A stretch of 38,486 bases of DNA from Phoronis ovalis (Eukaryota > Phoronida > Phoronidae): NCBI GenBank assembly GCA_028565635.1, contig JAOXYB010102493.1, forward strand, positions 1-38,486, in the 5' to 3' direction. The notes below the pieces were generated by a model, which saw only the letters and a program-made list of their open reading frames with translations, did no database searches and had not been told where the DNA came from. Numbering within the stretch: the first letter of the stretch is position 1; each line of letters opens with the position of its first letter. Below, in pieces: positions 855 to 38,153 of this stretch. The position numbers and the translations under genes were made by a program.

Positions 855-16562
<15,708 letters not shown>

Positions 16563-18590: not shown

Positions 18591-19599
18591 TTAACCAGAA
18601 CGACACGATTCTCTTGACTCGATAACCACCATACCTAACCATTTTTTTTCTTCGCCGTCATAATCACCAGCAGTATAGTTTTCAATAATACCCCAAGTCT
18701 TGTAATACACAATACAAATATCTTTCTTGTAAATTTCGTGAAACGCGTTAAAAAATGCAAGTTCGTCTAAAATATATTTAGCTGCTTCTTTCACGCCTTC
18801 ACCATTAAAGCTAGTGTCAATGTTTTCTTTTGGTAACGGTCCGGTATATCCAGTGAGTACCGCCTGGGCGCAAGCTAAAACGTCATCCTGCATACGGGTA
18901 CTGTTCTCAAATAACTTATAAATTGCAGTCATGTGTTTTTGATATTCTTGTTTAATATCTATGTCTTTTGGCCAGTCAAATACCAAAAACTTGGTTTGGT
19001 CTTCGGCCGGTAATTTATCAATAGCTTTGTTGGCGCATGAAATCAAATGGCGAGCATTTTTCTTTGCTTTTAACGCGAATTTCTTTTCGCCCAAAGCTTT
19101 GTATGTGTGTTCACTTGGGGTCTGTGGGGAGATCACTGCAATATGTTGTGTCTGTTGACTCAAAAACGACACAAATCGGTCAATTATTGGCTGCTTAAAA
19201 AACGAATTACCCGGACTCATTCCAAATACCATTAGGGTAGATTCCAAACCAAATAAGCGCTCGCCGTTCTGGTAAAGATACTGCGGTAGCTTGTTACGCA
19301 GTTTCAAAGAATTGAATGTGCTCACGCTCTTGCATTCCACTGAAAATGTAATATCAAAAAGATAATTTAGAAGAAATTAAGAAAGAATAAAAATGCTGAA
19401 GTTGAAGATTATAAAAAAAAATGGGCAAACTGTACTATACTGTTTGGTATTTTCCCCTAAAATCTGCTTCAATACCAATTAACGGGAAATAAAATCAAAA
19501 ATTAAGAAACAAAGAAGTGCTAAATATTTTTTTTAAAATACGAAAACATGTAAGAGAATATACATTTAAATAAAAAAATTAGTTTAAGGCAAACTTACT
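18591..19599 (-). CDS. CDPS: tRNA-dependent cyclodipeptide synthase (CDPS)
   Basis: CDPSs take two aminoacyl-tRNAs and join the amino acids into a cyclic dipeptide (2,5-diketopiperazine) through a covalent aminoacyl-serine intermediate. The body is one exon, 19339 down to TAA at 18591-18593. Only the A of the ATG lies upstream, at 19599, the last base of exon 1. The donor is AACAA|GTAAGT and the acceptor TTTCAG|TGGAATGC; splicing creates AACAATGG, a good start context. No upstream in-frame ATG precedes a stop in exon 1. The 249 residues fit the usual size. Visible family marks: G40-M-S42-P-G-N45 (AlbC G35, catalytic S37, N40), a Lys/Arg-rich helix at about 86-97 where AlbC binds tRNA, Y189-I-L-D-E193 (AlbC Y178/E182) and Y213 (AlbC Y202). 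The spacing from Y189 to Y213 equals that in AlbC. Lys214 replaces the His of the NYH subfamily. The product cannot be read from sequence. Confidence 0.93.
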
Positions 19600-19672
19600 T
19601 GTTACAAATCTGGTACTGACACAATCGGTAGAAAAGAGAGGACGTTGAAAGAGTGAAGCTGCTAACCGCTTT
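19599..19672 (-). other. CDPS 5' UTR exon 1 (5' end approximate)
   Basis: A strong splice donor GTAAGT follows base 19599. The 5' end is placed about 30 nt downstream of the TATA box. The exon is untranslated except its last base, the A of the start codon. The intron 19340-19598 is short (259 bp). Confidence 0.65.
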
Positions 19673-19695
19673 TGTCAAGGACAGTGCAAAGGGGG

Positions 19696-19703
19696 CTTTT
19701 ATA
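19696..19703 (-). promoter_or_regulatory. TATA box of the CDPS gene
   Basis: TATAAAAG on the minus strand, about 100 nt upstream of the exon 1 donor, preceded by purine-rich DNA. A CCAAT word lies on the plus strand near 19800, about 100 nt upstream. Position and match to consensus are good; transcription start inferred near 19665-19675. Confidence 0.65.
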
Positions 19704-19704
19704 G

Positions 19705-21570
19705 AAAAAGGGCTCAAAAGGGGCGCATCACAAAAAACAGCAAACTTACATAAACACTTTATTGGAAAATATCTGCCGATAAAACAAACTAATTTTGTGA
19801 CCAATGGGAGCTCAGAATGTTCACCAGGAAATTATGCACATACCATGTTCTCAGAATCGGACGTGGAAAATTTTAATGGTCTACTCAATAAATATGTAAA
19901 TAAAACCCTGATCTTTTTGGATTCGATAAACTTCCTGCCCGAGCAGCATCTTGATTTGAACCTGGGAACATTGACGTCACTGTTCGCCAAAATATATTTA
20001 ATTACCGCACCTCGTTAATTTGTTTGCAACATAATGAAATATTTGGCTGACTGATAACTTTATTTGCCTGTACTATTTATCCCATAGTAATTTAGGAATC
20101 TAATTTTTAAAATAATTAAGTCGTATTTATTTTCTTCAAGAAACCTAAAGAAATGTGAAGACGACAATACCATTTTGTGTAGAATGCTGTATTTTGAATT
20201 GAAATCTTCTATGGAAAATGTTTTAAAAACGAGAAAGAATGACATGCAAAACAAATATTCTCACCAGATGTCATTGGAAACCTTTAGGAGCTGGTTGGAA
20301 ATATGTAAATGTACTGTAAGTTGTCTATGATGAAGGAATGTCCCACGGTTTCAATATTGCATATAAAACTCCCTCGGTGACTTTCAAATTACGTTTGTTG
20401 CCAAATAGATTCTTTACCTGGGTGGGGCTCCTTATCAATTCAAATTTTGCAAATTACACCCAGCATTATCACTGTTTGCTGATTTCCCAGATATATTAAG
20501 GTTAATAAGTGAATGCGATAGACTTACCCAAGACAGTCTGGTAAAAAAAACATCATTAGTTTATGAGAACACATACAATCATATTATCGGTGTTTTTATA
20601 TGCTTCACAACCTAAATTTTCTAATTTCACTGCTAAAACCATAGACGCTGCCGAAAATTTTTTTTGCCCAAGCTATTGCAAAATTTAGATTACTTGTTCA
20701 TAATGGCATACATAGCAACATCGTATATTATACATACCCCCACCACCACCTCCACATAGAGTAATTTTATCAGTGCCAAAATACTATGCAACACGGTTAT
20801 CAAGAAAACGAAACTGAAACGCAATATTACTTCATCGGTGAATGTATTGTTGATAGTACATCTAAAGAACTGTAAAAAAACGAGCAGTCATTACAAAAGA
20901 ACATGAAATCATCAATACGAATTTTATCTACGTATACATCATAAAATAAAGAATACGAACAGAAAATAACTTTTAATGTAGGTGCACGACATTGACATCT
21001 TTTTGTGATTCAAACTAGAGAAGTTTTAGTATATGGAATGCCAGCGTATTTGCACTTTTAAATAATTGCACAGGCGCAACCCAGGAGCATATGCACTTTT
21101 AAGAATTTGACATTATTTGATGATATCCTGGTTCACGTCTATCCCGAAGCAGCAATGTCACCTTATCATGTTTACGATAAGAATCTCGGGATAAGCATCA
21201 ACAATAACAGGATATTAACCACGTTTCGCAGACTTAGATTATCAGGTTATAACTAGAACTACTAACTTCTACCTTTATTTGTATTTGTCCGTTTATCAGC
21301 AAAGGTTAAAACTACGCAGCAACAAATAAGAAACAAACGTCATATTCTGCTTGAAAAACAATTTTAAAATATCGGTAATTAAAATTAAGCTCAATTTTAT
21401 TGATTTATCAATATTTCTTTGAGGTCTTTTTCAAAAGCGCTAAAAAATGAATACTACAGTCACAGCTAAATAGTACGAATGGCATGCCTCATCCAATGGC
21501 ATGCTGTATACAATTTTTTCATACACATTGATTTAATCACGATTCTACCAGGAGATGTTTTTTTACAGAG
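19705..21570. other. spacer between the divergent CDPS and P450 genes
   Basis: Holds the regulatory DNA of two genes read away from each other. The plus-strand frame 19653-20018 overlaps the CDPS promoter and has no recognisable domain. Visible structure: the word TGCACTTTTAA twice (near 21050 and 21090), GGCATGC twice (near 21481 and 21498), and the nested palindrome at 21121-21219. No other exon seen. Confidence 0.6.
21121..21219. repeat. nested imperfect palindrome in the CDPS-P450 spacer
   Basis: Three inverted pairs are nested around one centre: GATATCCTG ... CAGGATATT outermost, TATCCCGA ... TCGGGATA in the middle, and CTTATC ... GATAAG inside. Together they could form a roughly 95-nt hairpin. 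It lies about 430 bp upstream of the P450 TATA box. Confidence 0.7.
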
Positions 21571-21576
21571 CGGTTA

Positions 21577-21582
21577 CACGTG
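21577..21582. promoter_or_regulatory. E-box CACGTG upstream of the P450
   Basis: CACGTG within GTTACACGTGACC, about 65 bp upstream of the P450 TATA box. It is a possible bHLH-PAS or Myc-type site; function not shown. Confidence 0.4.
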
Positions 21583-21626
21583 ACCAAGAGAGCTTCCTGG
21601 TTTGAGGCATTCCAGTAATTAACATG

Positions 21627-21634
21627 TGACGTCA
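21627..21634. promoter_or_regulatory. CRE-like site TGACGTCA upstream of the P450
   Basis: A perfect palindromic CRE (TGACGTCA) ends 9 bp before the P450 TATA box, a favourable position for a CREB/ATF-type factor. Chance occurrence of a perfect 8-mer so close is unlikely, but binding is inferred. Confidence 0.55.
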
Positions 21635-21643
21635 CTATGTGGC

Positions 21644-21650
21644 TATAAAA
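21644..21650 (+). promoter_or_regulatory. TATA box of the P450 gene
   Basis: TATAAAA about 95 nt upstream of the first splice donor (GTAAGT at 21744). It sets a transcription start near 21675. Confidence 0.7.
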
Positions 21651-21674
21651 CAGAGTATGTAAGAAGTGTTTGGA

Positions 21675-21743
21675 ATAATTTGAAGTCAGAAGTAGTTGGA
21701 AGACGGAGGAACTGACAGAAAACATTCACAACAAAAACATTAG
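21675..21743 (+). other. P450 5' UTR exon (5' end approximate)
   Basis: Leader between the TATA box and donor ATTAG|GTAAGT, with no ATG in it. The acceptor TTTCAG at 21881-21886 lies 2 nt before the ATG. Like the CDPS, this gene has a short leader intron directly at its start codon. Confidence 0.65.
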
Positions 21744-21829
21744 GTAAGTTTTTAAGGCTGATTTAGGCGGAATGCTAACTAATTAAAAAGTCTAACTGTG
21801 ATACATAAAGGCAAATCTGGGGCTAAATA

Positions 21830-21862
21830 TATTATTTATATATATTATTTATATATATATTA
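21830..21862. repeat. AT-rich low-complexity tract (TATATTATTTA repeats)
   Basis: Repeats of TATATTATTTATATA within the P450 leader intron, just before the branch/acceptor region. Confidence 0.8.
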
Positions 21863-21888
21863 CTAAACTGAACAATCTTTTTTCAGGT

Positions 21889-24800
21889 ATGATTGCGATT
21901 CCAATAATTGGTATACTGTTTGTTGTATTTTTGGTTGGAGCGTTGATTATTCAGAATAAATCAAAGAACGCTCCAGCTCGGCCTCGGCTTCCTCCTGGTC
22001 CAAAACCAGCATCCAAAGAGTAAGTATACAGTTCAGCGAATGTTTATCTATATTAAATTAATCCGCAGGAAAAATACCAGGATTGTTAAAAAACTATATT
22101 TATGTTATAAGTTACCTGCATTTCTACTATATTCAATCACTTGTGATTCTTTTACATGATTTGAAACATGTATGTCACCCCAAAACCTTCAGTAGAATTT
22201 TGGAATCCAGCAAACTTTTAAAAACATTTGACAATATAAAATATTGTTTATTTATTTCATGTATTTTAGAGACGGCAATAATGGTGACATAGTTAAGTCG
22301 GGCGGTTTAGTTAAATTCCTCTATGATACCCACAAGAAGTATGGTCCCGCAGTATCGTTTTATTTTGGTAAAATTTTGTGCGTCAGTTTAACAACGCCTG
22401 AACTCTGGGCTCAGCACAAGAAAGCATATAACAAACCACGTAAGTGTTGTACAAAGTGTGTTACATATAGCAGTTAGTTCCTAAAAGCAAGGATATTAAA
22501 TTTAATATTAACTTTGCTCACCTGCATCGTAGTGCCTTGTAATGCACAGTGTATCGTCTATCTTGTCTATAGAGGTTTACGTTCACTAGATATAAAGAAA
22601 ATTTGATCAGAAGGGTGGTTTTCAAATATCCGGACGCATTATTTTAATTTTGTTATAAATTTATTCCGTATTTATTAGCGACAGCGCATATATTGAAAGG
22701 ATGGGTGCATATTAATGCTTAACATTTATATATTCTTTTAAAGATGAAATCTTTGATTTGTGGCGTTTTATCTTGGGCGATAAAAGTATCCAATACGCTA
22801 ACGGTGAAGACGCTAAACGAAAACGACGTATACTGGCCCGTCATCTGGCGTCTAAAAATGTAAAACGACTTTATCCCATGTTCAACCAGGTATGTAACTG
22901 TATTATGTAGTAACTTAAACAGATGATATATAAGAATTACATGCACTGTGTTAATTTTAAAACGCTGTGGAGCGATATAGCTTGGACTAAAATCTTAAGT
23001 TTTAAAATATTGTCACAAGGAAAAATCTTGGCTTATCTTAGAATATCAATAACATTAAAGCAAGTGACTGCAGATGGTTCCCTTTCTAATGGACTCAAGA
23101 TCGCGTATTTTCACGGGATTTATTTTTATTTTTCACAGTTCGCAGAGGAAATGGCAAAAGAATGGAGCTCAGCTAGTGACAAGAGTGTGCACCTTCAAAG
23201 TTCAATGCTATATCTGGCCATGAATACAATTGCAAAAGCTGCCGTAGGTGGAGCCGTGGCAGAAGACTCTGTTGTCAGGCAATTAGCGATACATGCTCAA
23301 ACGGTATGAATTGTTCTTGTATAGAGGATGAAAACTATAGTTTTAAACCTTACTTTATTACTGGATATCTATGACAACGCTAACACCATGGCTCCTGGTG
23401 TTAAACAGTTTTTAATCAGTTTTAACACTTTCATGTGCAGTCTGAAAAATAGTGCAAACGAATACAGGGACCAAATTCGACTTCGTACACCGTCCATACT
23501 AGTCACTGATAAAAAAACGAAATATTACGATACTACGAAGTCTTATTAAGCTATAATCAAATCATGCATGTGTATATGTTGCCATTAATTATACAGACAT
23601 ATTTTAATGTATTTTTAATGCTCATATTATAATTTAAACCATTTTTTTCTTCTATAGTACATGTTTCTGTACACTTAGTATATTTTTGCATGTTTAGTTT
23701 TTCTTTTGAATGTTTAGTATATTAGTATTTGATTTACTGTTTGTTTACTTTGATAATTTAAACCATTTTTTTCTTCTAGTGTGTAGATGAGATAGTATTG
23801 CGTTTAGAAGGTAATTTTCCGGAAGAGGGCAGTCAAAGACAGAAAAACATTGATACAGCTATAAGTGAACTTCGCGGTAAAATCAGACAAGAGGCCTTGA
23901 AACGCCGTGAAAATCAACCCGAAGAACACGACAAACTGTACATAGACTTCATCATTGATGACGGAGCTGATGACGATGAATTAGAAGACGACGTGCTAAC
24001 GCATCTACTTGGCGGTAGTCACACACCTAGTGAAAGTAAGTCCAATGGTAGTAACTAAATTCATACTTTGAGCACAATCAACATTATTTTTAACTTATTT
24101 TACAGCGTAGAATGCTAAATTCGCGTTTCTTCACTAGCACCATGGTGAATTATGACTCTTACGCAGCTGCAATAGATATCTCTGTATTAGAAGCAACAGG
24201 ATGCCACGTTTCAGTTTGAAATTGTGAAATCAACATAACATTACTTATGCTTGGATTTTTAATCAGAATGCTACCTAGTACTAATTATGTTGTCAACACA
24301 TGTAGGATTTCAGCGTTGATCACCAATACTAACTGCTTTAACATGCGGTCAGTTCTACAATGTTAATTTTTTATGTTTGTAGGTATGACGTGGATGATGT
24401 TTTTCTTAGCACAGCATCCAGATATTCAACAGAAGATTTATGAAGAAATTAAGCGAGAAATAGGAGACGAACCAGTAACTTCACTCAACATGGACAAACT
24501 CAAGTAAGTTGTACTTAAAATGCAGATTATGGAATAAATGAACACCAGAACAATTACTATTACTGTAAACATACTCAACACAAACAGATGGACAGACAAA
24601 ATATGACCGTTTCTCCTCAAAAAAACTACATTACAGATAATCCAAAATGAGTGAATCTTGATACAGATAAAAACTTCGACTTCTGCTCCACAAACCGCAT
24701 CACAGATCAACCACAATGAACACATTTTCAAAGCTACTTCGTCTCTTTCTTTCAGATATATTCAGCAATGTATCGACGAAACATTTCGGCTTAGTACCGT

Positions 24801-25768
24801 TATTACTCTTTCTGCTAGAATTCAAGATGAAGAACAAATTATCAACGGCTACAAAATTCCTAAAGGGGTAAGTCATATCTTTAAACAGTTTTAAGGAAGT
24901 AGCCTTTGCCGCATTTTTATGTCTCATGAATCTGTGTCACATACAGTTGTACCTTCAGGTGTTTTTCAACAAAATTGATCCAGTATTAAATATTAAGCCT
25001 TCTGTGTTTTATTCAGTAATTACTTCACCTTTAGTTTGTTTTCAGGTAGTATCTTCAATTAGTTCGACAGTCAGTGTGCAAATTTAAGGAACATCTATCA
25101 ACCTCCCATAGTAGTATGGTGTAGTGGTGAAACAATAGGCTTATTTTAATTACAAATCTCTTCTACAATATTTACTAAAACATGTACCATTCTTTTTGCA
25201 GACAACTGTCATTCACGCATTAGCTGTACAGCATACAGATACTCAGTATTGGGAAAAACCAGATGAGTAAGTCACCATTTTTTAGTGCCCAATTATTGCC
25301 TTCTAAGAACTACAAGTTTTTTAATTAATGCTTAATATATTAAGTCTTTCAAGGGCAGAGAATTTCTGTCAGACATGTTTATTTGATGGTATTAGTGTAG
25401 TAGTCATATAGTTGTTTGTTTGAACTATGTAGTACTACGCCACCAAGAACATATCTATAGTCCTATGTACATAATAGACGCATCATGTACTATATTTGAT
25501 TTTTTTCAGATTTAATCCAGATCGTTTCAGTCCAGAGCAGAGAAAATCTCGTTCACCAATGACATTTCAGCCATTTGGGTTCGCTGGTCAGAGGATATGC
25601 CCAGCAGTCAAGTATTCCTATGCTGTTTTAACATCTTGGCTGACAGTATTCGTTAAACAATACAGGTTTAAGTTAAAGGACAAAGACATGCATAATATTA
25701 CAGGGAATTACAGAATACTCAATGCAGCTCTTGGACAAATTCATTTGACACTGGAAAAACGAAATTAA
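21889..25768 (+). CDS. CYP20A1-like: CYP20-family cytochrome P450 (complete, 9 coding exons)
   Basis: Heme-thiolate monooxygenase with an N-terminal ER anchor. Coding exons: 21889-22019, 22270-22439, 22744-22889, 23139-23303, 23780-24035, 24383-24503, 24756-24867, 25202-25266, 25510-25768, total 1425 nt (474 aa plus stop), phases close. Visible parts: hydrophobic segment 1-21, proline-rich hinge LPPGPKP, then DGNNGDIVKSGGL and YGPAVSFYFG, which closely resemble animal CYP20A1; K-helix E338-T-F-R341; PERF-region FNPDRF; heme loop PFGFAGQRICP with Cys419. Oddities: the I-helix reads GGSHTPS (282-288), with His where most P450s have the acid of AGxDTT, and the Gly after the heme Cys is missing. 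Human CYP20A1 is similarly degenerate and has no settled substrate. A charged insertion at about 248-275 precedes the I-helix. It is divergent from the CDPS, so oxidation of a cyclodipeptide is a reasonable inference, unproven. An ordinary CYP20 ortholog that merely sits here is the alternative. Confidence 0.92.
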
Positions 25769-26997: not shown

Positions 26998-29900
26998 TCA
27001 ACAGCCAAACATACCGCCTGGCTTGGATTTCTTACTTGTTCCTTTTGCTTTATTTTTCACCATCCATGATGGTACTTTTCTTTTACTCTGACTTGACTGA
27101 CTTTGTGACATGTTAGGAGATTCTTGACTACTACTAAATGAAGTCCTGGCATGTGACTGGCTACTGCTTAACTTTGGCTGTGTCTGTGACGTTGATCTTG
27201 AGAACTGTGATAGGTCTGTTGCGGTTGTATTTTTTGCAGGTGGTATGCCAAATTGGCGTTTAAGAATGGAGATAACCAGTTTTATTTGTCCCCACGTAAT
27301 CGTGTCAGGCAGTGCTGCTTTAATTGGACCTATTCGACTGATGTCTGTAAGATATGATAATAAAAAGCTGTTATTAACTTATTAAAAGATTCTTTAGCAC
27401 GAGCAACAGGTAACAAAGTGTGTGCATCTGTAAGGCTCGTTAAAGAAAATCACCTGTAGTCTATATTTATACAAAAAATTTGAAAGATTTCTTTCATTTC
27501 ATACATTAATGCACATGACAAGCGCACACAATTCACTTGTTACTAGTAGCTTGTTTGTATTAGCTAGTTCAAAGATACATACAGACAACAGGTAAAATAT
27601 GAATGTGAACTAACAACTGTTCATCTGATTTAATAAAGAAATCCCCAATGTTTGTATTAGAGACCTGTTTAACAGATGATGTGATATAAATGCTAACTTA
27701 TTTTGAGCACTGTTTCAATTCCTTTCATGATTAAACAAAGTATGCTGTTACTTTGTTTAGATGAATCATCACAATCAAGCAGCTCTTTAACACCAGTTTA
27801 CTGGCGATGTTTTTTTTTAAAAATCGGGTGAACGATTGCAGAGATATGATTAATCCGGCAAATATTTATCCATTTCCTGTATGTGAAAATCTTATACCAT
27901 CTCTACACTGTACTGTCAGAAGAAACATGTGCAATGGCTGACATAAACAAATAAAGTTATGAAGCTTGTTTGATCAATGACTGAAAAAAATAAAAATTAA
28001 TTTTATCATGACATTATTTGCTTATCACATCGTCACAACATTTTCTATAATTTTGTTTTGCGATCACATTTGCATAAAACTGAATCTGTCCTTCCGTTAG
28101 AAGATGCTGCTTGTATGAGATTTCTACCTGAATTGATAGGTGGTGCTCTGATTGTCTTCTCTATTGTACTGATGAGTTTATTTGTTAAACCAAGTCTTTC
28201 AGTATCCAGTGGTAAGCCAGCGTCTAAACATTCACAAAGATGACCTTCAATCGTACAGGACTTCAAGTAGCGCGTCTGAGCAATCCATTCCTACAAGACA
28301 ACAGAAGTCACACTTTAATTCTTAGAAGTTACATCATCAAAAAAACAAAGATCAGAAAGCATTCTTTTTAGGGATTTTAAGGCTTAACTGGTACATCACT
28401 TTTCTGATATTTCAACAATGAACTGGTAGAAGCCCACTGCTTTTATTACACAAAAGCCAGTACTGCAAATTTTTTTTTTTTGTAATGAGATATTCGAAAT
28501 ATGACAACTGCAAAAACAACAGTATTATCAGGAATGTTTACCCTTTCAGTAATTATCATTATTATTTTATTAGCGACTTTGTAAACTTGGGGACACATTA
28601 ATTATATTATATGACAGATTAACCTTTCCCAAACATAAGAAAGAATGCAAACACTAAATATTATCGAAAAAACTTTTTAAAATTAATTTCTATTCATGTT
28701 GAAATAAATTCCTCTTTTTCAATTATAAGACTACTTACTATGCTTCTTTTCTCCAACTGAAACAGCACATATGAATTCCTCATGGTCTCAGTCAAACTGT
28801 GCAATATATTCTGTTCAGCTTCTTGTAGTTGTGTAGCATCACTCTAAAACAGCAAATATTTTGAAGAATAAAGTATATAACAAAAGCAGTAGGTGAGTTC
28901 TCTATTAAAATCTGTTTGGCTGTGGTAAATAAGTATACTAAGTAATGTACTGTGAGGAAATGCAATGTAAGGTAAGGTAATGCAATGTAAGGTAAGGTAA
29001 GGTAAGGTAATGCAATGTAAGGTAAGGTAATGCAATGTAAGGTAAGGTAATGCAATGTAAGGTAAGGTAAGGTAAGGTAATGCAATGTAAGGTAAGGTAA
29101 TGCAATGCAAGGTAAGGTAATACAATGTAAGGTAAGGTAATGCAATGTAAGGTAAGGTAAGGTAAGGTAAGGTAAGGTAATGCAATGCAATGTAATGTAA
29201 GGTAAGGTAAGGTAATGCAATGTAAGGTAAGGTAATGCAATGTAATGTAAGGTAAGGTAAGGTAAGGTAATGCAATGTAAGGTAAGGCAATGCTATGTAT
29301 TGTAATGCAATGTAGTGCAAGATAATGTAAAGTACTAAAAAATTAAAGTACATTATTTGGGACTAACAACTTTGTCCCAGACACTATAAAAGTTCTGTGT
29401 GGAGATGATGAATGTTCCACTCTTGCTGGTGATGACAATTGATGATTTTTAATAACCATCAAAAAGTAAAAATAAAATAGTTGCCTCAAAGTGATACGCA
29501 TTGTATAAAAAGTAATTGGAACAATAAAATTCATGTCTAATATTGAACAGGTTGCTAGACCAGTTTGGGCAACTTATTCACACTTTATACTTTGAGAATA
29601 ATTTTGGGTAGTTACATGAAAAGACATAAGGGATTATTAAAAATTATTTATCTATGTAATTAGCAAGGCCATTTGGAGTAAAACCCACTATTTTCAAAAC
29701 ACAAACTTGACCAAACTTTAAATGTTAAACTTATAGAGATTTCCAAAAAATATTACAGCACCAGTACTGTCACAAAAAAATTATACCTTTGCATTATCTG
29801 TCTCATCTGGAAAATTGTCCAAGTTAAGTACATCTTTATGCTGAGAGACGAAATTGCAAACGAGATCTATTACTCTCTGACCTAACAATTCCGCTTTAGC

Positions 29901-32900
29901 ATGTGGCAGATCTTCCAACTCCATCAGCTTGCTGACAGAGCTGGGTCTGAAATTATTACACAGCAAGAGTATTATAAATAAAGTATATATTACACAGAAC
30001 TGTTTTCCACAAAATTTTATATTGTGTCTATGATGTAATAAATACCAGTACAAAAACTATATTTTAATTTAATAGTGAAACATTAATAACTTTAAACAGC
30101 ATTATTTCAAAAAATTGAGTATTTGACAGTCATGTGAATGCAACACTATATGAACCACATTTAAATTTGAGAAATGACTGCGGCTTATACAAAAGGATAC
30201 GTGTGAAAATAAGAAGTAGGCACGCCCTTACCGTATTATGGTTATATCACTGACATTTTTATTGCTTGCCACCATGTAAGGGTAATATTCCTTCTCGGCA
30301 GCAATTTGGTTTCGTAACTCCATAATCTTTTTCAATAGTTCTTTCTGTAAGAAATACCAACAAAATTAAACAAGTGTACTGAAAGTTTTCACAAGTTAAA
30401 CAAGTGTACTGAAAGTCTACAGAAGTTAAACAAGTGAGTCTACAGAAGTTAAACAAGTGTACTGAAAGTCTACAGAAGTTAAACAAGTGTACTGAAAGTC
30501 TACAGAAGTTAAAAAGATTTATTTCACTTCCATTGTGCCCGCACAATATACATGCTTTACTATCCTCTGGTTGAGAGATCCTGAGTAACTAAACTTTGAT
30601 ACATCATTATTTCTGATTTATAGGAAGTTATCAGGTATCAATATCAACATAGCACAGAAAAAGGGACTGACATTCTATCCACCTCAACTTGTCTCAACAG
30701 AGATAATGTTTTGGTTTTTACCTGTAGACTGATTTGCTCAGCTGTTGGTTGTTTGTCTACTGCCTGGCTGGAGGTGCCTCGACTAGACAACCAATTCTTG
30801 TTTGGAATCTGTGGTAAAATCCTAAAAGATTCACAAAATATTTTACTGTCAGTTGTGGCTTACACACTTGAAAAACATTTGTCCTGTACAACTTAACTGC
30901 AAGTTAGCATGGATAAACTTCATGGTAGCAACTTTTTCTTTCACTTTCTTTCAAAAACATCTCATCTCAATTAAAATGATGAATACCCAATTTAATGTTT
31001 TCCAGTAAAAAAAAAGGCCTGCTATTGCAGAATAAGGAGAAAAATAATTGGTGAATTTTGACTCTCACTGTGAAATTTCACAGGGACTATAAATTTTCTA
31101 CAAAGCTGAACATAACATACTTTGGAATAAAGGTGGGTTCTATTTTAGTCTCTTTTTCATATGATGCCAGTTCATGGTTGGCTTGTACTTTCAAGGTTGG
31201 TTCTGATGAACTTTGCACTTGGGACAACCATTTGTTACCCATTGAAGACACATCGACTGTAGACCCAAAACCACTTTCCACCGGAGTTTCTTTAAGGTAC
31301 CCCAAACTTATAAGCAAACGACCTACAATGTAAAAATATTTAATTCCATGGCAATGCATAATATATTTTTTGTGAGATTCAGGAACAATAAAAATTCTTT
31401 GTCTATAACCGGGACTCACAAGAAAAGTAATTTTATCATGCCTACAAATGAACCAAAGGTATTTTAAGAAAGTAACAAATTCAAAAACTTGCAATGAAAC
31501 AACACTGACACTGTCAAAAAAAAATCAGGTTACTTACTTAATGCTTTCCACCATTTCTCAGATTTATCCCTGAAACAATATCAAACTAAAATACATCTAT
31601 GACTTTTTTTATAACATAACTATATCTCATTAGCTGAAGGCATTTTTGACAAGAATATAGCTAAAAAAATTATTATTTGTCAGCACCATGCATTCATGCT
31701 TTTATACACTTGGCAGTAGCTGTTCAAAGACTTACTTTCCTTCACCAAAGCCTTTAAATTTCGTAAATTTTGCTGGTAGTCTCTGGTTAGTTGAACCTCG
31801 AACAAAGTAAACAGGAACAGTAATACCAAATCTTCCATCCATCATCTAAACCAAATAACAACAAATATTTTCATAGCATATTATTTTTATTCATCATCAC
31901 AGTTTTTTTGTAGCTGTACTGATTACTTTGGGACCATTTGGGATGGTTTTGAGGTTATGAGCAGAGATGGGGCTTTAAGGAAGTTTTTACGGACATGGGC
32001 ACTTACGGAAAAGATAACGATAATTACTTCCGTCCGATTTTTGACATTACTGACAACCTGACAGCTCTTTATGGTACAAATAATAAAAAGAACTTATCTT
32101 CATTTGGTTTACTCCATAGTCACATGTGCTTACGCTAATAATAAACAATCAAATGTAGAAATAGTACCACAAAACACAGGTAACGGTTTTTTATGTACAA
32201 CAGCACAAATGTGTTACATAATGAACTAACACAGAAAACTATTCAAAACATTATGACTGTAATACATGTTAAAAAGAGTACCTTGATTGCATGGAAAAGA
32301 ATTTTTGCCTCACGACCAACATCGAGTTTCTCAGAACTTAGCCTATCACCTGTAGACTGAAAATTAGTATTTAATCTACAAAACAAGAATTATAAATCAG
32401 TTTCTCACAAGAAATTATGCTGGGATTCAGCCATTGTAAATAGCATCATGCAATCAGATACTGAGCATGTCAAATCAGATAGTTTTACTGTCACAATGGT
32501 CAACTGTTTTTACTAAATGTAAAAAAAAATCATCCCCTTTGATGGAAAATAATAGTTCATATATATATATGTCCGTTATTCACATGACATAGTTTTGGAA
32601 TACTATATGCTGAATACTGCTTTACATAAAATAGAGTGTGTCGCTTTCTTTGTTAGGATTACTTCCAATCTTTCAGGTTTCCTGTACAGTTGCTTAATAT
32701 ATGCCACATTACTTCGATATTCTGATGATACACTTTTTTCTTATATTATTACATCATTTCAAGATTTTGTGGAACTTGAAATGATTAAAAGTGATTAATC
32801 GTTTCTGCGAAAATACGCTACTCAAACCATGCCATCCCCTCTATTCCATAGATTTGTATAAAGACTTCAGATTACATGTACGATTTGATGACAACAAGAT

Positions 32901-35900
32901 TAATCATTGACATGCTCTGTGTTATAGCAACAAAAAAGTTTATTACTTATGTGCACTTACTTTCTTGCACAATTATCACAACAACTTTCAGTTCCTCCAA
33001 CAGATGTCACTACTTTATCTTCAAAATATTGCAGAATCTGATGTCTGAGACAAGATGTGGAAGACAAATACTGTTCCATTTTGGACAACATTTGTAACTT
33101 GTGATTTTTGAACTTTGGGTTCTTAATATCCTTCAGAAAAAACCTGTACGGTGTAAAATAATATAACTCAGAAAGGAGAACAGTTCTAAACTGTGAATGC
33201 AATCAAGGTATGTAGGTTGGAAATCCTAGCAAGATACACTTTCAGAACATGAAAACATGGGAACTAAAATACATGCCGATTGACACAATTCAAAATCTAT
33301 TAACACAGTACACTGTCTGGTTAACACTACATTCCTTAAAAAACTTTCAACGGTAACTAATGAAGGCTCCATAGCTAAATAGCCACTTATGTTCATTTTT
33401 GTTTAAAAGCATAAGGTTTGGAACCGGCAGTCCAGTATGCAAAATCGGTCACTAAATTAAGAAATATCAAATTTAAAATTATCAAATTTTGCAATATTAG
33501 AGGGTGTCTCCCACCTGAAAACTAATTAATTCCTCCTAAAGTACAATGATGACACAAAGCTAATATACACTAGCAAGGTTCACGTTCAGATTATACCTGT
33601 TAGTACTAAAATCCTTTGGAGCATAGAAGACATGACAAGAACTGGGCTGACCATCTCTACCAGCACGACCAATCTCCTGGTAGTAAGATTCAATATCTTT
33701 GGGAGCTGAAATAAAAACGTCGACATATTTCCTAGCTTTTTTATTCAAAAGTGTTTCTTATTAAGTAAATTATTGTAAAATACAAATGAGCAGTATATAA
33801 TGATACTGCAACACAAAAAGTTTTTGTTCCCTATCATCAAAAAGTTTGCTCTTCAAATTAGAGGGGAAGAATTTGAAAGTACGAAATTTCAGGGTAGCAA
33901 TGTTAATGTTGTGTTTTCTTGCATCTACCTAATTACTAATACTCTTGCTTATGGCTTTAGTGATGTAGGTTTGCACCATAGAGTAATTTCAATATTTTTT
34001 ACTTTATGATACAAGATGTATGTACAACAGCATATTTCAAGTTTTACAGGAAAGTAACAATCAACAAAATGAATAGAATATGCACTTACCACCGTAATGA
34101 ATAACCTTTCTCACATCAGGCTTATCAATACCCATACCAAAAGCTACCGTTGCCACGACAACAGAAACTTGATCAGTCACAAATAAATGATGAGCTTTTT
34201 TTCTCCGACTCATTGTACAACCAGCGTGATATAGAGCACTCTGAACTCCTAAAGCTGTAAAATTTAAACAGATTGATATAGAGCACTCTGAACTCCCAAG
34301 GCTGTAAATTTAATCATATTTTTACCATTTTATTAGTTTCCAAGGGCAGAATGCATTTTTTCAAAAAAACGAAAACTGGAAAAACCATTTAATATTAAGA
34401 AGATTGAAATCTTAAGCTATACTACAAAGGGATCAGAAATGTCTTAAAGATTTTACTGTAAGTCACAAATTGAAAACCTACAATGTCGTTTTTATATTAT
34501 TTTGCAGTTTTTGGAAAACAGTAACTTAAAAATATAAACCTACATTGTAATAAACTATGGACAGTCTCTGAAGCTTTCTTAGTTGGACAGTAGATGATGG
34601 TTGATCCTTCAAAATCATAACTCTTGCCTTCTTTTATCATTTGAGATTTGAGGTCACTCATCATATCAACTTTTAAACTAACAGATAAAAACAGATTCGG
34701 TCTGAAAAAAAATTTAATAATTATAATCGGTAGACCCAAACATTTTGTGCTGTGGCAAAAAGAAGGATGAACTGGATGATGTTCTTTAGTTTGAATTTTA
34801 CTGAATTTTTTCACTTTTTTTCCAAAAACAATCCTTGGAAACAGAATCATAAAACAATCCCTGTTAACAGAATCATAAAACAATCCCTGGAAACAGAAAC
34901 ATAAAACAATCCCTGGAAACAGAAACATAAAACAATCCCTGGAAACAGAATCATAAAACAATCCCTGTAAACAGAATCATAAAACAATCCCTGTAAACAG
35001 AATCTTAAAACAATCCCTGTAAACAGAATCATAAAACAATCCCTGTAAACAGAATCTTAAAACAATCCCTGGAAACAGAATCATAAAACAATCCCTGGAA
35101 ACAGAATCATAAAACAATCCCTGTAAACAGAATCATAAAACAATCCCTGGAAACAGAATCATAAAACAATCCCTGTAAACAGAATCATAAAACAATCCTT
35201 GGAAACAGAATCATAAAACTCACAAACTAGATCTGACAACTACTCTGATCAGTCTTACTTTCTAATAAAGAAAACATTTCTTAACAAAACATTTGTGGAA
35301 TATTTGCTGAATCTGGACATTAAAATTACACATTCTACTTTTTGTAAAAAACATGTTTGTATTTTTTCCATTTGCTCATACTTCTAGCATCTGTCACTGT
35401 TAGTATGCAGCAGTTCTTGTATATTCTTTCTTTGTGCAACAGAACTTTATGTTCAATTAATTGACAACTTGTCATAACAATTATTCTATTTCTGATCAAG
35501 TGATATTTTTAAATTGCAATCTCTACCTGTCAAATCCAGTGCATGTCAGCAGTGGATTCTTTAATTTGAGTGATTTACAAATGTCTATTCTAACTTCAGG
35601 CGTAGCAGTTGCTGTCAGTGCCATTAAAGGTACCTAAAAATATAACGTAAGTGTCCTTCTGAAGCAATGTTATTTTTTCCATAACCTGTGGCAATGCTAT
35701 AATAAATGAATTGTGTACTAAAACCTTACAAATTAAGAAATTATTTGTAAAAATAAGTATGATATTAAAACATTACGTACTTCACTTTTAAAGCAGCTTT
35801 CTGTTGCATACAATGAATAACATATTTTGTGAATAAATAAGAAAATGGACTTTTGGATCATGCATATGTACCTGAGACAGCAGACCACGTAGGTTTCCGA

Positions 35901-38153
35901 GCGATCTGTAAGCCGATCTGAAGTCATGTCCCCACTGACTCACGCAATGAGCTTCATCAATAGCAATCAAGTCAATACCTACAAACATATGCACAATCAT
36001 GAATTCATAGTATCCAACATAAGCAACTGTATCGAATTATTTCTGTTATGTAACTCTGATCTTTCATTTCCAAGGACTTTGTACATGTTGAATAGAAACC
36101 CTCCTCCCTTATTTTTGAAAAATTGTGTGATCTTTTTAATGCAATACAATAGATATTTCTCATTACAGTTTCCTATATTCGCCACTAAGGGGATATGTGG
36201 GCTTCATCACCATTCACGCAAAGTATAATACATTATTGCATGCATAAAATTGCATTTATACTGCTACAGAATAAAATAATGGCAGGGTTATTGTAAACCT
36301 TCTATACCGTTGGAGCATGTAAATGCTATTTTTATGAGTAACTAAACTAAAAATATTTTTGAAAATTTGATATTTTTCAATGCATTGAATGCTAAAGGCT
36401 TGTCTACAAATCTCACATTTTCTCACAATATTCCCTGGTAGACAAAACTTGATACTTTACTTGAAAAGGTCACATTGTATATTCCAGAAAACATATGGAT
36501 ACCTAATAAAAATTAATAAGTAATTTACATAGATATAACAGCAGGTTTTAATGTACAATATGCATACTTTTACTGGGCCAAGCACATACATGTTACCACT
36601 AAACACACTCACCTACTTTATTGTTGAGGTCAACGAGTACACGACCTCCCGCAGATACATATTCAGGCGTCATAAACACGACACGATACATTCCACTGAA
36701 AACCAATTAATAATGTGAAACTTCAGCAACTTATACCAGTAACTGGCAGCAGATATTACCAGCCTCACCTATCTTGCTAAATGAACAAACTGTAATATTG
36801 TCCTACTTAGGTAGAACGCACAAAAGTTCAGTTAACTGATAACATTTACCACAGCATGTCTGGTCTTCTGAAAGTCTTGTTTTTTTTACATTTACTCAGC
36901 TAAAAGATGTAAAATTACAAGCACAAAACATAAATTATATCATTATGTTTCATTGTAGGTATTATTTTGTAGTCACTCAAAATTGCTTGCTTACTGGATG
37001 CTTTTACAAAACAATTACAATTTAATTATACTATAAATGCTTAATCAATCTGGACCATGCAAAATGTATGTGATGTGCTTTTTTTAACAACTATAATCAA
37101 GTTCACCCACAAATGACCTAGCAGCTAGTGACATCTAGTGGAGATGAAAGTATTCTCAGAGTTCCTCAATATTAAAAACATCACAATTTCTCACCGCCTG
37201 GCAGATGCAATGGCAGAAACAAATTATGCATTTAATTTTACAGCATTAAACTGGCAAATCTTACCTCATTAGGTTATGTGTGACTTCTGTTGTATTTTGT
37301 TGAGATGACCCTAGGAAACAGGCATTAATATTTACAACACTCAATCCCCGTACCTGGTCTTCCATTAAAGAAATTAATGGGGAGATAACGACCGATGTTC
37401 TGCCAGTGAAAACGGATGGATACTGGTAGCACAAACTTTTGCCATAACCTTGAATATGAAAAAGATAACTTTAAAATATCATCGTATACAGCTCACCTCA
37501 CTATGTATCCATGTGTCTTAGTTGTAAACGCAGTGCACTCAAAAGTGGACACAAGGGATAATTTCCAATATGATTAAACTTTTCTGTGAATGTTTAATAT
37601 CTTCACTTCTTTTTAAGTTAAAATATAGTACCCAAATGTAGACAACTACAAAAGATATGGCCTTATAACATTCCAAACTGATCAACTATACTAGGAGATC
37701 ACAGATATAAACGATGTCGATATGAAGTCGAAAACTTTGAACTTTCTGTTACATCCTTTATGAATTCTTTATTCTTGCACCACCTATTTACCTGTTGCCA
37801 TGATTACACAGTTGTCTCTCTTGTCATTTAGAATGCTGTTAATAATTTTCCACTGCATACTACAAATAAAGACAAAGACAATTTTGAAAATGTTCACAAT
37901 ATGTTAAGCTCATTGCTCATTTCTAAAAAAGGTTTTGATCGCCATCTTTCGGAGACTTTGCTTTCGTGTATAATTTCTGACATAATTAAACTGAACAGCA
38001 ATGGAAGTTTTATGGTTTTTTGAATTTTATTGTGGCCCACTTTATTAGCCAGTTTGTCAAAAAAAAGAATTACTCACGGTCTAAATTTACCATATCCAAA
38101 GTACTGTTTAAGAACTTGTGAATACTTAGGATCTTCAGGCTGATTTAAAGGAT
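26998..38153 (-). CDS. WRN: Werner-type RecQ helicase (WRN), 5'-partial, 20 exons
   Basis: ATP-dependent 3'-5' DNA helicase of the RecQ family, acting in the nucleus on forks, D-loops, G-quadruplexes and telomeres. Exons 5'->3': 38078-38153, 37792-37859, 37265-37448, 36613-36695, 35872-35978, 35527-35633, 34544-34701, 34090-34254, 33597-33705, 32961-33143, 32282-32375, 31736-31845, 31538-31569, 31121-31322, 30722-30821, 30232-30344, 29787-29946, 28739-28843, 28128-28290, 26998-27344. Two leading bases plus 888 codons stay in frame. Motifs in order: QWK with [12 protein letters not shown] (Walker A), [15 protein letters not shown] (DEAH), [48 protein letters not shown] (motif VI), RQC zinc site ending CCDNC, winged helix (KFKGFGEGK ... 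EKWWKAL), HRDC, then a C-terminal block RAPPINSD like human WRN and a basic tail [14 protein letters not shown]. These tail matches favour WRN over BLM. The 5' exons, including any exonuclease domain, lie outside the window. Confidence 0.95.
28960..29330. repeat. pentanucleotide-based minisatellite (GGTAA / TGCAA / TGTAA)
   Basis: About 370 bp built only from 5-bp words GGTAA, TGCAA and TGTAA, with the 20-bp phrase TGCAATGTAAGGTAAGGTAA repeated many times. It lies in the WRN intron between exons 29787-29946 and 28739-28843. Long open frames read across it (LPYLTLHY...) are artefacts of the 5-bp period. Confidence 0.95.
30372..30512. repeat. tandem repeat, 30-bp unit, in a WRN intron
   Basis: Unit AGTTAAACAAGTGTACTGAA plus AGTCTACAGA, about five copies, one with a 12-bp deletion. 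It lies between WRN exons 30722-30821 and 30232-30344. Confidence 0.9.
34228..34313. repeat. tandem duplication of a WRN exon start and splice acceptor
   Basis: About 39 bp (GATATAGAGCACTCTGAACT ... GCTGTAAA(A)TTTAA) occurs at 34228-34267 and again at 34275-34313 with a few changes. The first copy includes the acceptor and first 27 nt of exon 34090-34254; the second has an intact-looking acceptor (TTTACAG) upstream. Confidence 0.85.
34832..35220. repeat. 26-bp tandem repeat array in a WRN intron
   Basis: Unit AATCCCTGGAAACAGAATCA plus TAAAAC, about 14-15 near-identical copies differing at a few fixed sites (CTGG/CTGT, ATC/AAC). It lies between WRN exons 35527-35633 and 34544-34701. No spacer structure, so it is a minisatellite. 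Confidence 0.95.

What the first reader, a model, noticed from the sequence alone, without database searches (positions are those of the whole stretch)
18591..25768. Divergent CDPS and P450 pair: candidate animal cyclodipeptide biosynthetic locus
Seen: the two genes are adjacent and head-to-head, about 1.9 kb between TATA boxes. Known: bacterial CDPSs are often linked to tailoring P450s (Mycobacterium tuberculosis Rv2275 with CYP121; Bacillus YvmC with CypX). Inferred: the same synthase-oxidase logic may have arisen in an animal with an animal P450 family. I know of no described animal CDPS-P450 pathway.
Basis: partly seen in the sequence, partly recalled or inferred. Interest (0 to 1): 0.95.

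Follow-up and report, generated by a model that had tools for sequence, protein, structure and literature searches.

The report
Animal dipeptide-ring enzyme beside odd P450
An animal genome carries an intact bacterial-type gene for making small ring-shaped dipeptides, next to an unusual relative of the least understood human P450 enzyme; the neighbours are real, but that they work together is only a possibility.

Summary
On the minus strand lies an intact 249-aa cyclodipeptide synthase (CDPS) gene: Pfam CDPS 55.7 bits, NCBIfam tRNA_cyclodipep 77.3 bits. Its start codon appears to be made by splicing. Head-to-head lies a nine-exon, 474-aa P450; the TATA words are 1,941 bp apart. The host is a lophotrochozoan-type animal.

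New: the P450 is of the CYP20 clade, the orphan animal P450 family (331 bits; first hit named as another P450 103 bits), but not the ordinary CYP20A1. The genome has other CYP20 genes on three contigs. The best-read one is 46-49% identical to mollusc and amphioxus CYP20A1; the window copy is 30-35% identical to the ten rows compared.

For a pair: adjacency, a diverged P450, and two identical CRE words in the gap. Against: P450 matches on at least 31 of 4805 contigs, two CREs also at an unrelated P450 locus, and no test of conserved adjacency or expression. CDPS activity is likely; a dedicated pathway is possible (0.20). Animal CDPSs are already known from cnidarians and an annelid.

The parts
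18591..19339 (-). CDPS coding exon with stop codon; T and G of the start codon at 19339-19338
   Evidence: PF16715 55.7 bits; TIGR04539 77.3 bits; splice model
19340..19598 (-). Inferred CDPS 5' intron (donor GTAAGT, acceptor CAG)
   Evidence: Sequence; no transcript
19599..19672 (-). Inferred CDPS exon 1 (5' UTR; gives the A of ATG); its start is a guess from the TATA word
19697..19703 (-). TATAAAA word upstream of the CDPS
   Evidence: one of 44 such words in the window
19972..19981 (+). CRE word TGACGTCACT, 269 bp upstream of the CDPS TATA
21627..21636 (+). CRE word TGACGTCACT, 17 bp (start to start) upstream of the P450 TATA
21644..21650 (+). TATAAAA word upstream of the P450
21889..25768 (+). 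CYP20-clade P450, nine coding exons: 21889-22019, 22270-22439, 22744-22889, 23139-23303, 23780-24035, 24383-24503, 24756-24867, 25202-25266, 25510-25768
   Evidence: model; PF00067 205.8 bits; CYP20 clade

Best explanation
The window holds a real, intact, probably single-copy CDPS gene in the nuclear genome of a lophotrochozoan-type animal, presumably acquired from bacteria long ago. Its protein most likely takes an aminoacyl-tRNA, moves the amino acid onto Ser42, joins it to the amino acid of a second aminoacyl-tRNA and releases a cyclodipeptide (conserved residues shown; mechanism inferred from the family). The P450 beside it is a separate animal gene: a diverged extra member of the CYP20 clade, in a genome that also has ordinary CYP20A1-like genes. 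The simplest reading is that the two are neighbours with no proven shared pathway. The product, its use (defence is the usual guess) and the P450's substrate are unknown.
For: CDPS family scores over both curated cut-offs. AlbC S37, N40, Y178, E182 and Y202 map to S42, N45, Y189, E193 and Y212. Codon score positive in the coding frame only. Animal genes on both sides: ABC-transporter exons and helicase exons. P450 in the CYP20 clade (100/99) and distinct from the host's other CYP20 genes. At least 31 of 4805 contigs hold P450 matches, so chance adjacency is not extreme. CYP20A1 is single-copy in vertebrates and of unknown function (PMC8669017, passages).
Against: No transcript, activity or relative was tested. 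AlbC His203 is Tyr213 here (21 of 22 rows have His), and AlbC R98, R99 and R101 are not kept in this alignment, so activity could be altered. The two CRE words in the gap and the divergence of the P450 fit a functional pair as well or better.
Confidence: 0.65

Rival explanations
1. A functional pair: the CDPS makes a cyclodipeptide and the diverged CYP20-clade P450 oxidises it, both driven from one shared intergenic region (perhaps by CREB/ATF factors), perhaps with export by the ABC transporter next door.
For: Head-to-head adjacency. The P450 is a diverged extra copy, 30-35% identical to the ten rows printed, free to have a new role. TGACGTCACT occurs twice in the gap; 0 of 1000 shuffles of the gap hold two TGACGTCA; 204 in 77.4 Mb genome-wide. 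Bacterial CDPSs are often coded beside a P450 (PMC2922099, passages), and fusions to P450 and ABC-transporter domains exist (PMC5816076, passages).
Against: The CRE was noticed by eye and then tested with 12 other patterns. An unrelated P450 locus, L003, also holds two TGACGTCA in 3,471 bases. P450s and ABC transporters are common. No conservation, expression or chemistry was tested. The transposon-like repeat between the genes shows that the gap is not untouched.
Confidence: 0.2
2. The CDPS protein no longer makes cyclodipeptides: it is decaying or has taken another tRNA-linked or regulatory role.
For: Tyr at the AlbC His203 position; AlbC R98, R99 and R101 not kept in this alignment; low identity, 13-21%, to the other rows of A4.
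Against: Full-length open frame, five catalytic-site residues kept, host-like codon use. One bacterial CDPS has the same Tyr.
Confidence: 0.12
3. Artefact: bacterial contamination or a misassembly that put the CDPS beside the P450.
For: Bacterial-type family; coding part without intron.
Against: Host-like codon use and GC (0.392 against 0.406 for the P450), a splice-made start codon, animal genes on both sides of one contig, no bacterial match at E<=0.001 among 160 candidates and only distant ones (21-22% identity) in two collections.
Confidence: 0.03

Closest known systems
Animal CDPSs: Nematostella (Nvec-CDPS2), coral, anemone and marine-worm sequences, Platynereis (PMC5816076, PMC2922099, passages)
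   Same: A stand-alone CDPS in a marine-type animal genome; Ser and Asn of the GxSxxN motif kept
   Different: The known ones are filed as NYH; here the trio reads N-Y-Y. No sequence comparison was possible: none was found in the protein collection and the originals were not held.
Bacterial CDPS-P450 pairs (YvmC-CypX and others; PMC2922099, passages)
   Same: CDPS gene next to a P450 gene
   Different: There an operon with a bacterial P450; here two divergent animal-type genes with introns and a P450 of the CYP20 clade. A shared pathway is not shown.
CYP20A1
   Same: Same clade (100/99); PFGFAG heme loop, the FGFAG start also listed for Hydra CYP20A1 (PMC8110760, passages); GGxHT in the I-helix region
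   Different: 30-35% identical to the rows printed (up to 36% to Tegillarca), while C2330 of the same genome is 46-49% to mollusc and amphioxus CYP20A1; placed outside the other CYP20 rows (90/84)

Membership tests
Cyclodipeptide synthase (CDPS) | Match to the family profile over the curated cut-off | tested here: met
   PF16715 55.7 bits, cut-off 27; TIGR04539 77.3 bits, cut-off 45
Cyclodipeptide synthase (CDPS) | Catalytic Ser37, Tyr178, Glu182 and Tyr202 (AlbC numbering) | tested here: met
   S42, Y189, E193, Y212
Cyclodipeptide synthase (CDPS) | Makes cyclodipeptides from aminoacyl-tRNAs | not testable with these tools
   No assay; structure prediction not accepted
NYH subfamily of CDPS | Trio Asn40, Tyr202, His203 (AlbC numbering; positions recalled, subfamily names from PMC5816076) | tested here: not met
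   Asn45, Tyr212, Tyr213; so not filed as NYH, though NYH-like in the first two
CYP20 clade | Groups with CYP20A1 against other P450s | tested here: met
   100/99 support, 21 rows against 6 other P450s; first 29 hits score 221-331 bits, the 30th 103
CYP20A1 orthologue | Closest member of the host genome to other animals' CYP20A1 | tested here: not met
   C2330 is closer: 46-49% against 34-35% for the window copy to the same mollusc and amphioxus rows
CDPS-P450 biosynthetic pair | The two genes are adjacent | tested here: met
CDPS-P450 biosynthetic pair | Adjacency conserved, co-expressed, and the P450 acts on the CDPS product | not testable with these tools
   No related animal genome or transcript data held (one search states that G000 has no relatives here)

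The most novel reading that the evidence does not exclude
This is an animal tRNA-dependent cyclodipeptide pathway in which a diverged CYP20-clade P450 tailors the CDPS product, both genes sharing one CRE-bearing control region. It would give a first substrate class, cyclodipeptides, to test on the orphan CYP20 family, human CYP20A1 included.
Probability: 0.16. Interest if true: 0.92.

Novelty: new member of a known kind. Interest (0 to 1): 0.5.

Why it matters
Animal CDPSs are few, and in the papers seen only Nematostella's is described as characterised. This adds one from a lophotrochozoan-type animal, with an unusual Asn-Tyr-Tyr trio. CYP20A1 is called the last human P450 with no known function (PMC8669017, abstract and passages). 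A diverged CYP20-clade enzyme beside a CDPS offers a cheap, concrete substrate idea, cyclodipeptides, for that family, even if the odds are modest.

Tried and rejected
Ordinary CYP20A1: my first reading of the P450. Rejected when the own-genome search showed further CYP20-like genes and the comparison made C2330 the better CYP20A1 match.

A gene between the two: the 19653-20018 (+) frame has no Pfam match, no second copy in the genome and neutral codon use. No Rfam match at gathering score in 12-27 kb.

Animal relatives of the CDPS: the single-sequence search found none at E<=0.001 among 160 candidates. The alignment search (E<=10, only the 8000 candidates sharing most words scored) listed 20 proteins: 13 named bacterial, 7 without an organism name (two of these with a function label), none named as an animal. 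The tool needs shared exact words, so this does not show absence. Prokaryote genome scan: 3 Bacillus loci out of 346 pattern matches. Plasmids: 1 record of 72,556, a Streptomyces.

Product prediction from the P1/P2 pockets (PMC5816076, passages): residues mapped, but they fit no motif in the passages seen; dropped.

Regulatory words: 13 patterns were counted. Besides the CRE, GATAAG is denser in the gap (4, shuffle mean 0.9, 10 of 1000 shuffles reach it); the AP-1 word TGACTCA is absent from the gap. The longest words shared by the two gene-near 700-bp ends of the gap are one of 11 bases and six of 10, mostly AT-rich; the CRE is one of the six.

18S search to name the host: no answer three times; the mitochondrial contig was used instead. 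Gene names there other than cox1, and the comparison with mollusc, phoronid and entoproct gene orders, are from memory.

Full report
OBSERVATION. The window is one contig (C4708) of a 77.4-Mb, 4805-contig genome. On the minus strand an open frame at 18591-19340 matches Pfam CDPS at 55.7 bits (cut-off 27) and NCBIfam tRNA_cyclodipep at 77.3 bits (cut-off 45). The best solved relatives are BtCDPS (E 9.6e-9) and YvmC (1.8e-5). The frame's first codon is GTG, but splicing a donor at 19598 to the acceptor ending at 19340 joins ...AACAA to TGGAATGC and makes an ATG across the junction. This is inferred from sequence; no transcript was seen. On the plus strand nine exons with GT/AG inner borders and matching phases give a 474-aa P450, PF00067 205.8 bits. 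TATA words at 19703 (-) and 21644 (+) are 1,941 bp apart, but the window has 44 such words.

HOST. The mitochondrial contig C1114 reads cox1 (PF00115) with AGA/AGG at Ser positions, CGN at conserved Arg positions and TGA as Trp, and AAA at a conserved Lys (NHKDIG). This points to the invertebrate code rather than the cnidarian or echinoderm one. The gene order (F-nad5-H-nad4-nad4L, S-cob-nad6, nad1-L-L and V on one strand; T and P on the other) resembles the ancestral mollusc and phoronid type as I recall it. C2330's CYP20 is 46-48% identical to Solemya, Mactra and Haliotis, while Solemya is 56-60% identical to the three other molluscs compared. So I say lophotrochozoan-type animal, perhaps not a mollusc.

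THE CDPS. There is one match in the assembly by profile and by protein. Caveat: the profile control rang in 0 of 14 control genomes, B. subtilis included. In a 22-row alignment AlbC S37, N40, Y178, E182 and Y202 are S42, N45, Y189, E193 and Y212 here; H203 is Y213, the only one of 22 rows without His. CDPSs were divided into NYH and XYP (PMC5816076, passages); this one reads N-Y-Y. A Streptomyces nigrescens plasmid CDPS has the same Tyr, so the change is not unique. AlbC R98, R99 and R101 are not kept in this alignment. Codon scores are positive in the coding frame only, with a table trained on the P450 exons. The gene lies between multi-exon animal genes: an ABC transporter downstream on the same strand (ABC_membrane and ABC_tran exons) and a helicase beyond the P450 (Helicase_C 31.3 bits; 'RecQ/WRN-like' is my recall from the sequence). 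Contamination is therefore very unlikely. No animal relative was found in the protein collection, but that search needs shared exact words, so absence is not shown.

THE P450. The best hits were 331 bits for an unnamed Solemya protein and 322 and 321 for Branchiostoma CYP20A1 or CYP20A1-like. The first 29 hits score 221 bits or more; the 30th, named as a P450 3A, scores 103. The reading 'ordinary CYP20A1' failed on the next test. The host has further CYP20 genes on C2330, C2235 (two partial genes) and C609. C2330 (402 residues read) is 45.8-48.6% identical to Solemya, Mactra, Haliotis and Branchiostoma, and its sisters are 73% identical to it. The window copy is 30.0-34.9% identical to the ten CYP20 rows printed (36% to Tegillarca by the tree program). 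In the tree the CYP20 rows are separated from six other P450s with 100/99 support, and the window copy falls outside the 20 other CYP20 rows (90/84, not a starred branch) on an end branch of 1.07. Long branches may mislead: holding it with the host's other copies (AU p 0.22) or with those plus molluscs (0.27) is not rejected. So it is either an old CYP20 paralogue or a fast-evolving recent one. Its Cys ligand, ExxR and meander are present; the Gly after Cys-Pro is Ala, as in C2330. CYP20A1 is widely distributed in animals, sponges included, single-copy in vertebrates and of unknown function (PMC8669017, passages). In Capitella it is a clear orthologue (PMC4229089, passages). Its I-helix motif is degenerate in metazoans (PMC8110760, passages).

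IS IT A PAIR? For: adjacency and divergence, a non-standard CYP20 copy, and the 10-mer TGACGTCACT (a CRE) once 17 bp upstream of the P450 TATA and once 269 bp upstream of the CDPS TATA. TGACGTCA occurs at three places in the window, two of them here; 21 of 1000 shuffles of the gap held one or more and 0 of 1000 held two. Genome-wide there are 102 forward and 102 reverse TGACGTCACT (reversed control word 129 and 129), so about 0.005 are expected in the gap and two have a chance of about 1e-5 (my arithmetic) before correcting for choosing the motif after seeing it; I treat it as suggestive. No TGACGTCA lies in the four stretches of the other CYP20 loci, of which only C2235b is known to include an upstream region; but L003, an unrelated P450 locus, has two in 3,471 bases, one of them inside the matched exon stretch. 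Against: at least 31 of 4805 contigs hold P450 matches, so a P450 on this contig by chance is about 1.5% and next door about 1%. A repeat of about 160 bp at 20129-20290, with 48 further matches elsewhere, lies between the genes. Conservation and expression are untested.

LITERATURE. Animal CDPSs were recognised in Nematostella and Platynereis, the latter induced in an antibacterial response (PMC2922099, passages). Further NYH members come from coral, anemones and marine worms (PMC5816076, passages). Eukaryotic phyla listed in 2014 were Ascomycota, Annelida, Ciliophora and Cnidaria (PMC4159871, passages). Six searches showed in their listings, three of them cut to the best rows, no animal CDPS-P450 pathway and no mollusc CDPS; they cover open-licence PMC papers only. 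Seguin et al. 2011 (the Nematostella enzyme) was not looked up; I know it only as cited.

VERDICT. Real genes, real adjacency, a new animal CDPS and a diverged CYP20-clade P450. CDPS activity is likely; a dedicated pathway is possible, about one in five.

Noticed in passing
window 20129-20290; host contigs C2090, C206, C101, C3041, C2952, C965, C4382, C1008, C2208: About 160 bp between the two genes belong to an interspersed repeat (48 further matches, 68-84% identity). On nine contigs two copies face each other 450-750 bp apart end to end, as the inverted ends of a small DNA transposon would; the window holds one arm.
   Followed up: partly
host contigs C2330, C2235, C609 (L013-L016): The host has at least three CYP20A1-like genes besides the window copy, 73-87% alike, although CYP20A1 is single-copy in vertebrates.
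   Followed up: partly
window 21162-21195: Three GATAAG words within about 35 bp in the intergenic gap; four in the gap in all, reached by 10 of 1000 shuffles.
   Followed up: no
window 1378-12421 (-): ABC transporter exons (ABC_membrane, ABC_tran) downstream of the CDPS on the same strand: a possible exporter, but such genes are common.
   Followed up: no
window 27004-36697 (-): Helicase gene exons (Helicase_C over its cut-off, DEAD below it), RecQ/WRN-like by my recall, facing the P450 tail to tail.
   Followed up: no
window 28792-29353 (-): Low-complexity stretch of short T-rich units that is open in several frames ([11 protein letters not shown]...), seen; a microsatellite-like array.
   Followed up: no
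L012 3001-3693 (Streptomyces nigrescens plasmid): Bacterial CDPS with Tyr in place of His203 (VYYRPW), while the related P0121-P0126 have His.
   Followed up: no
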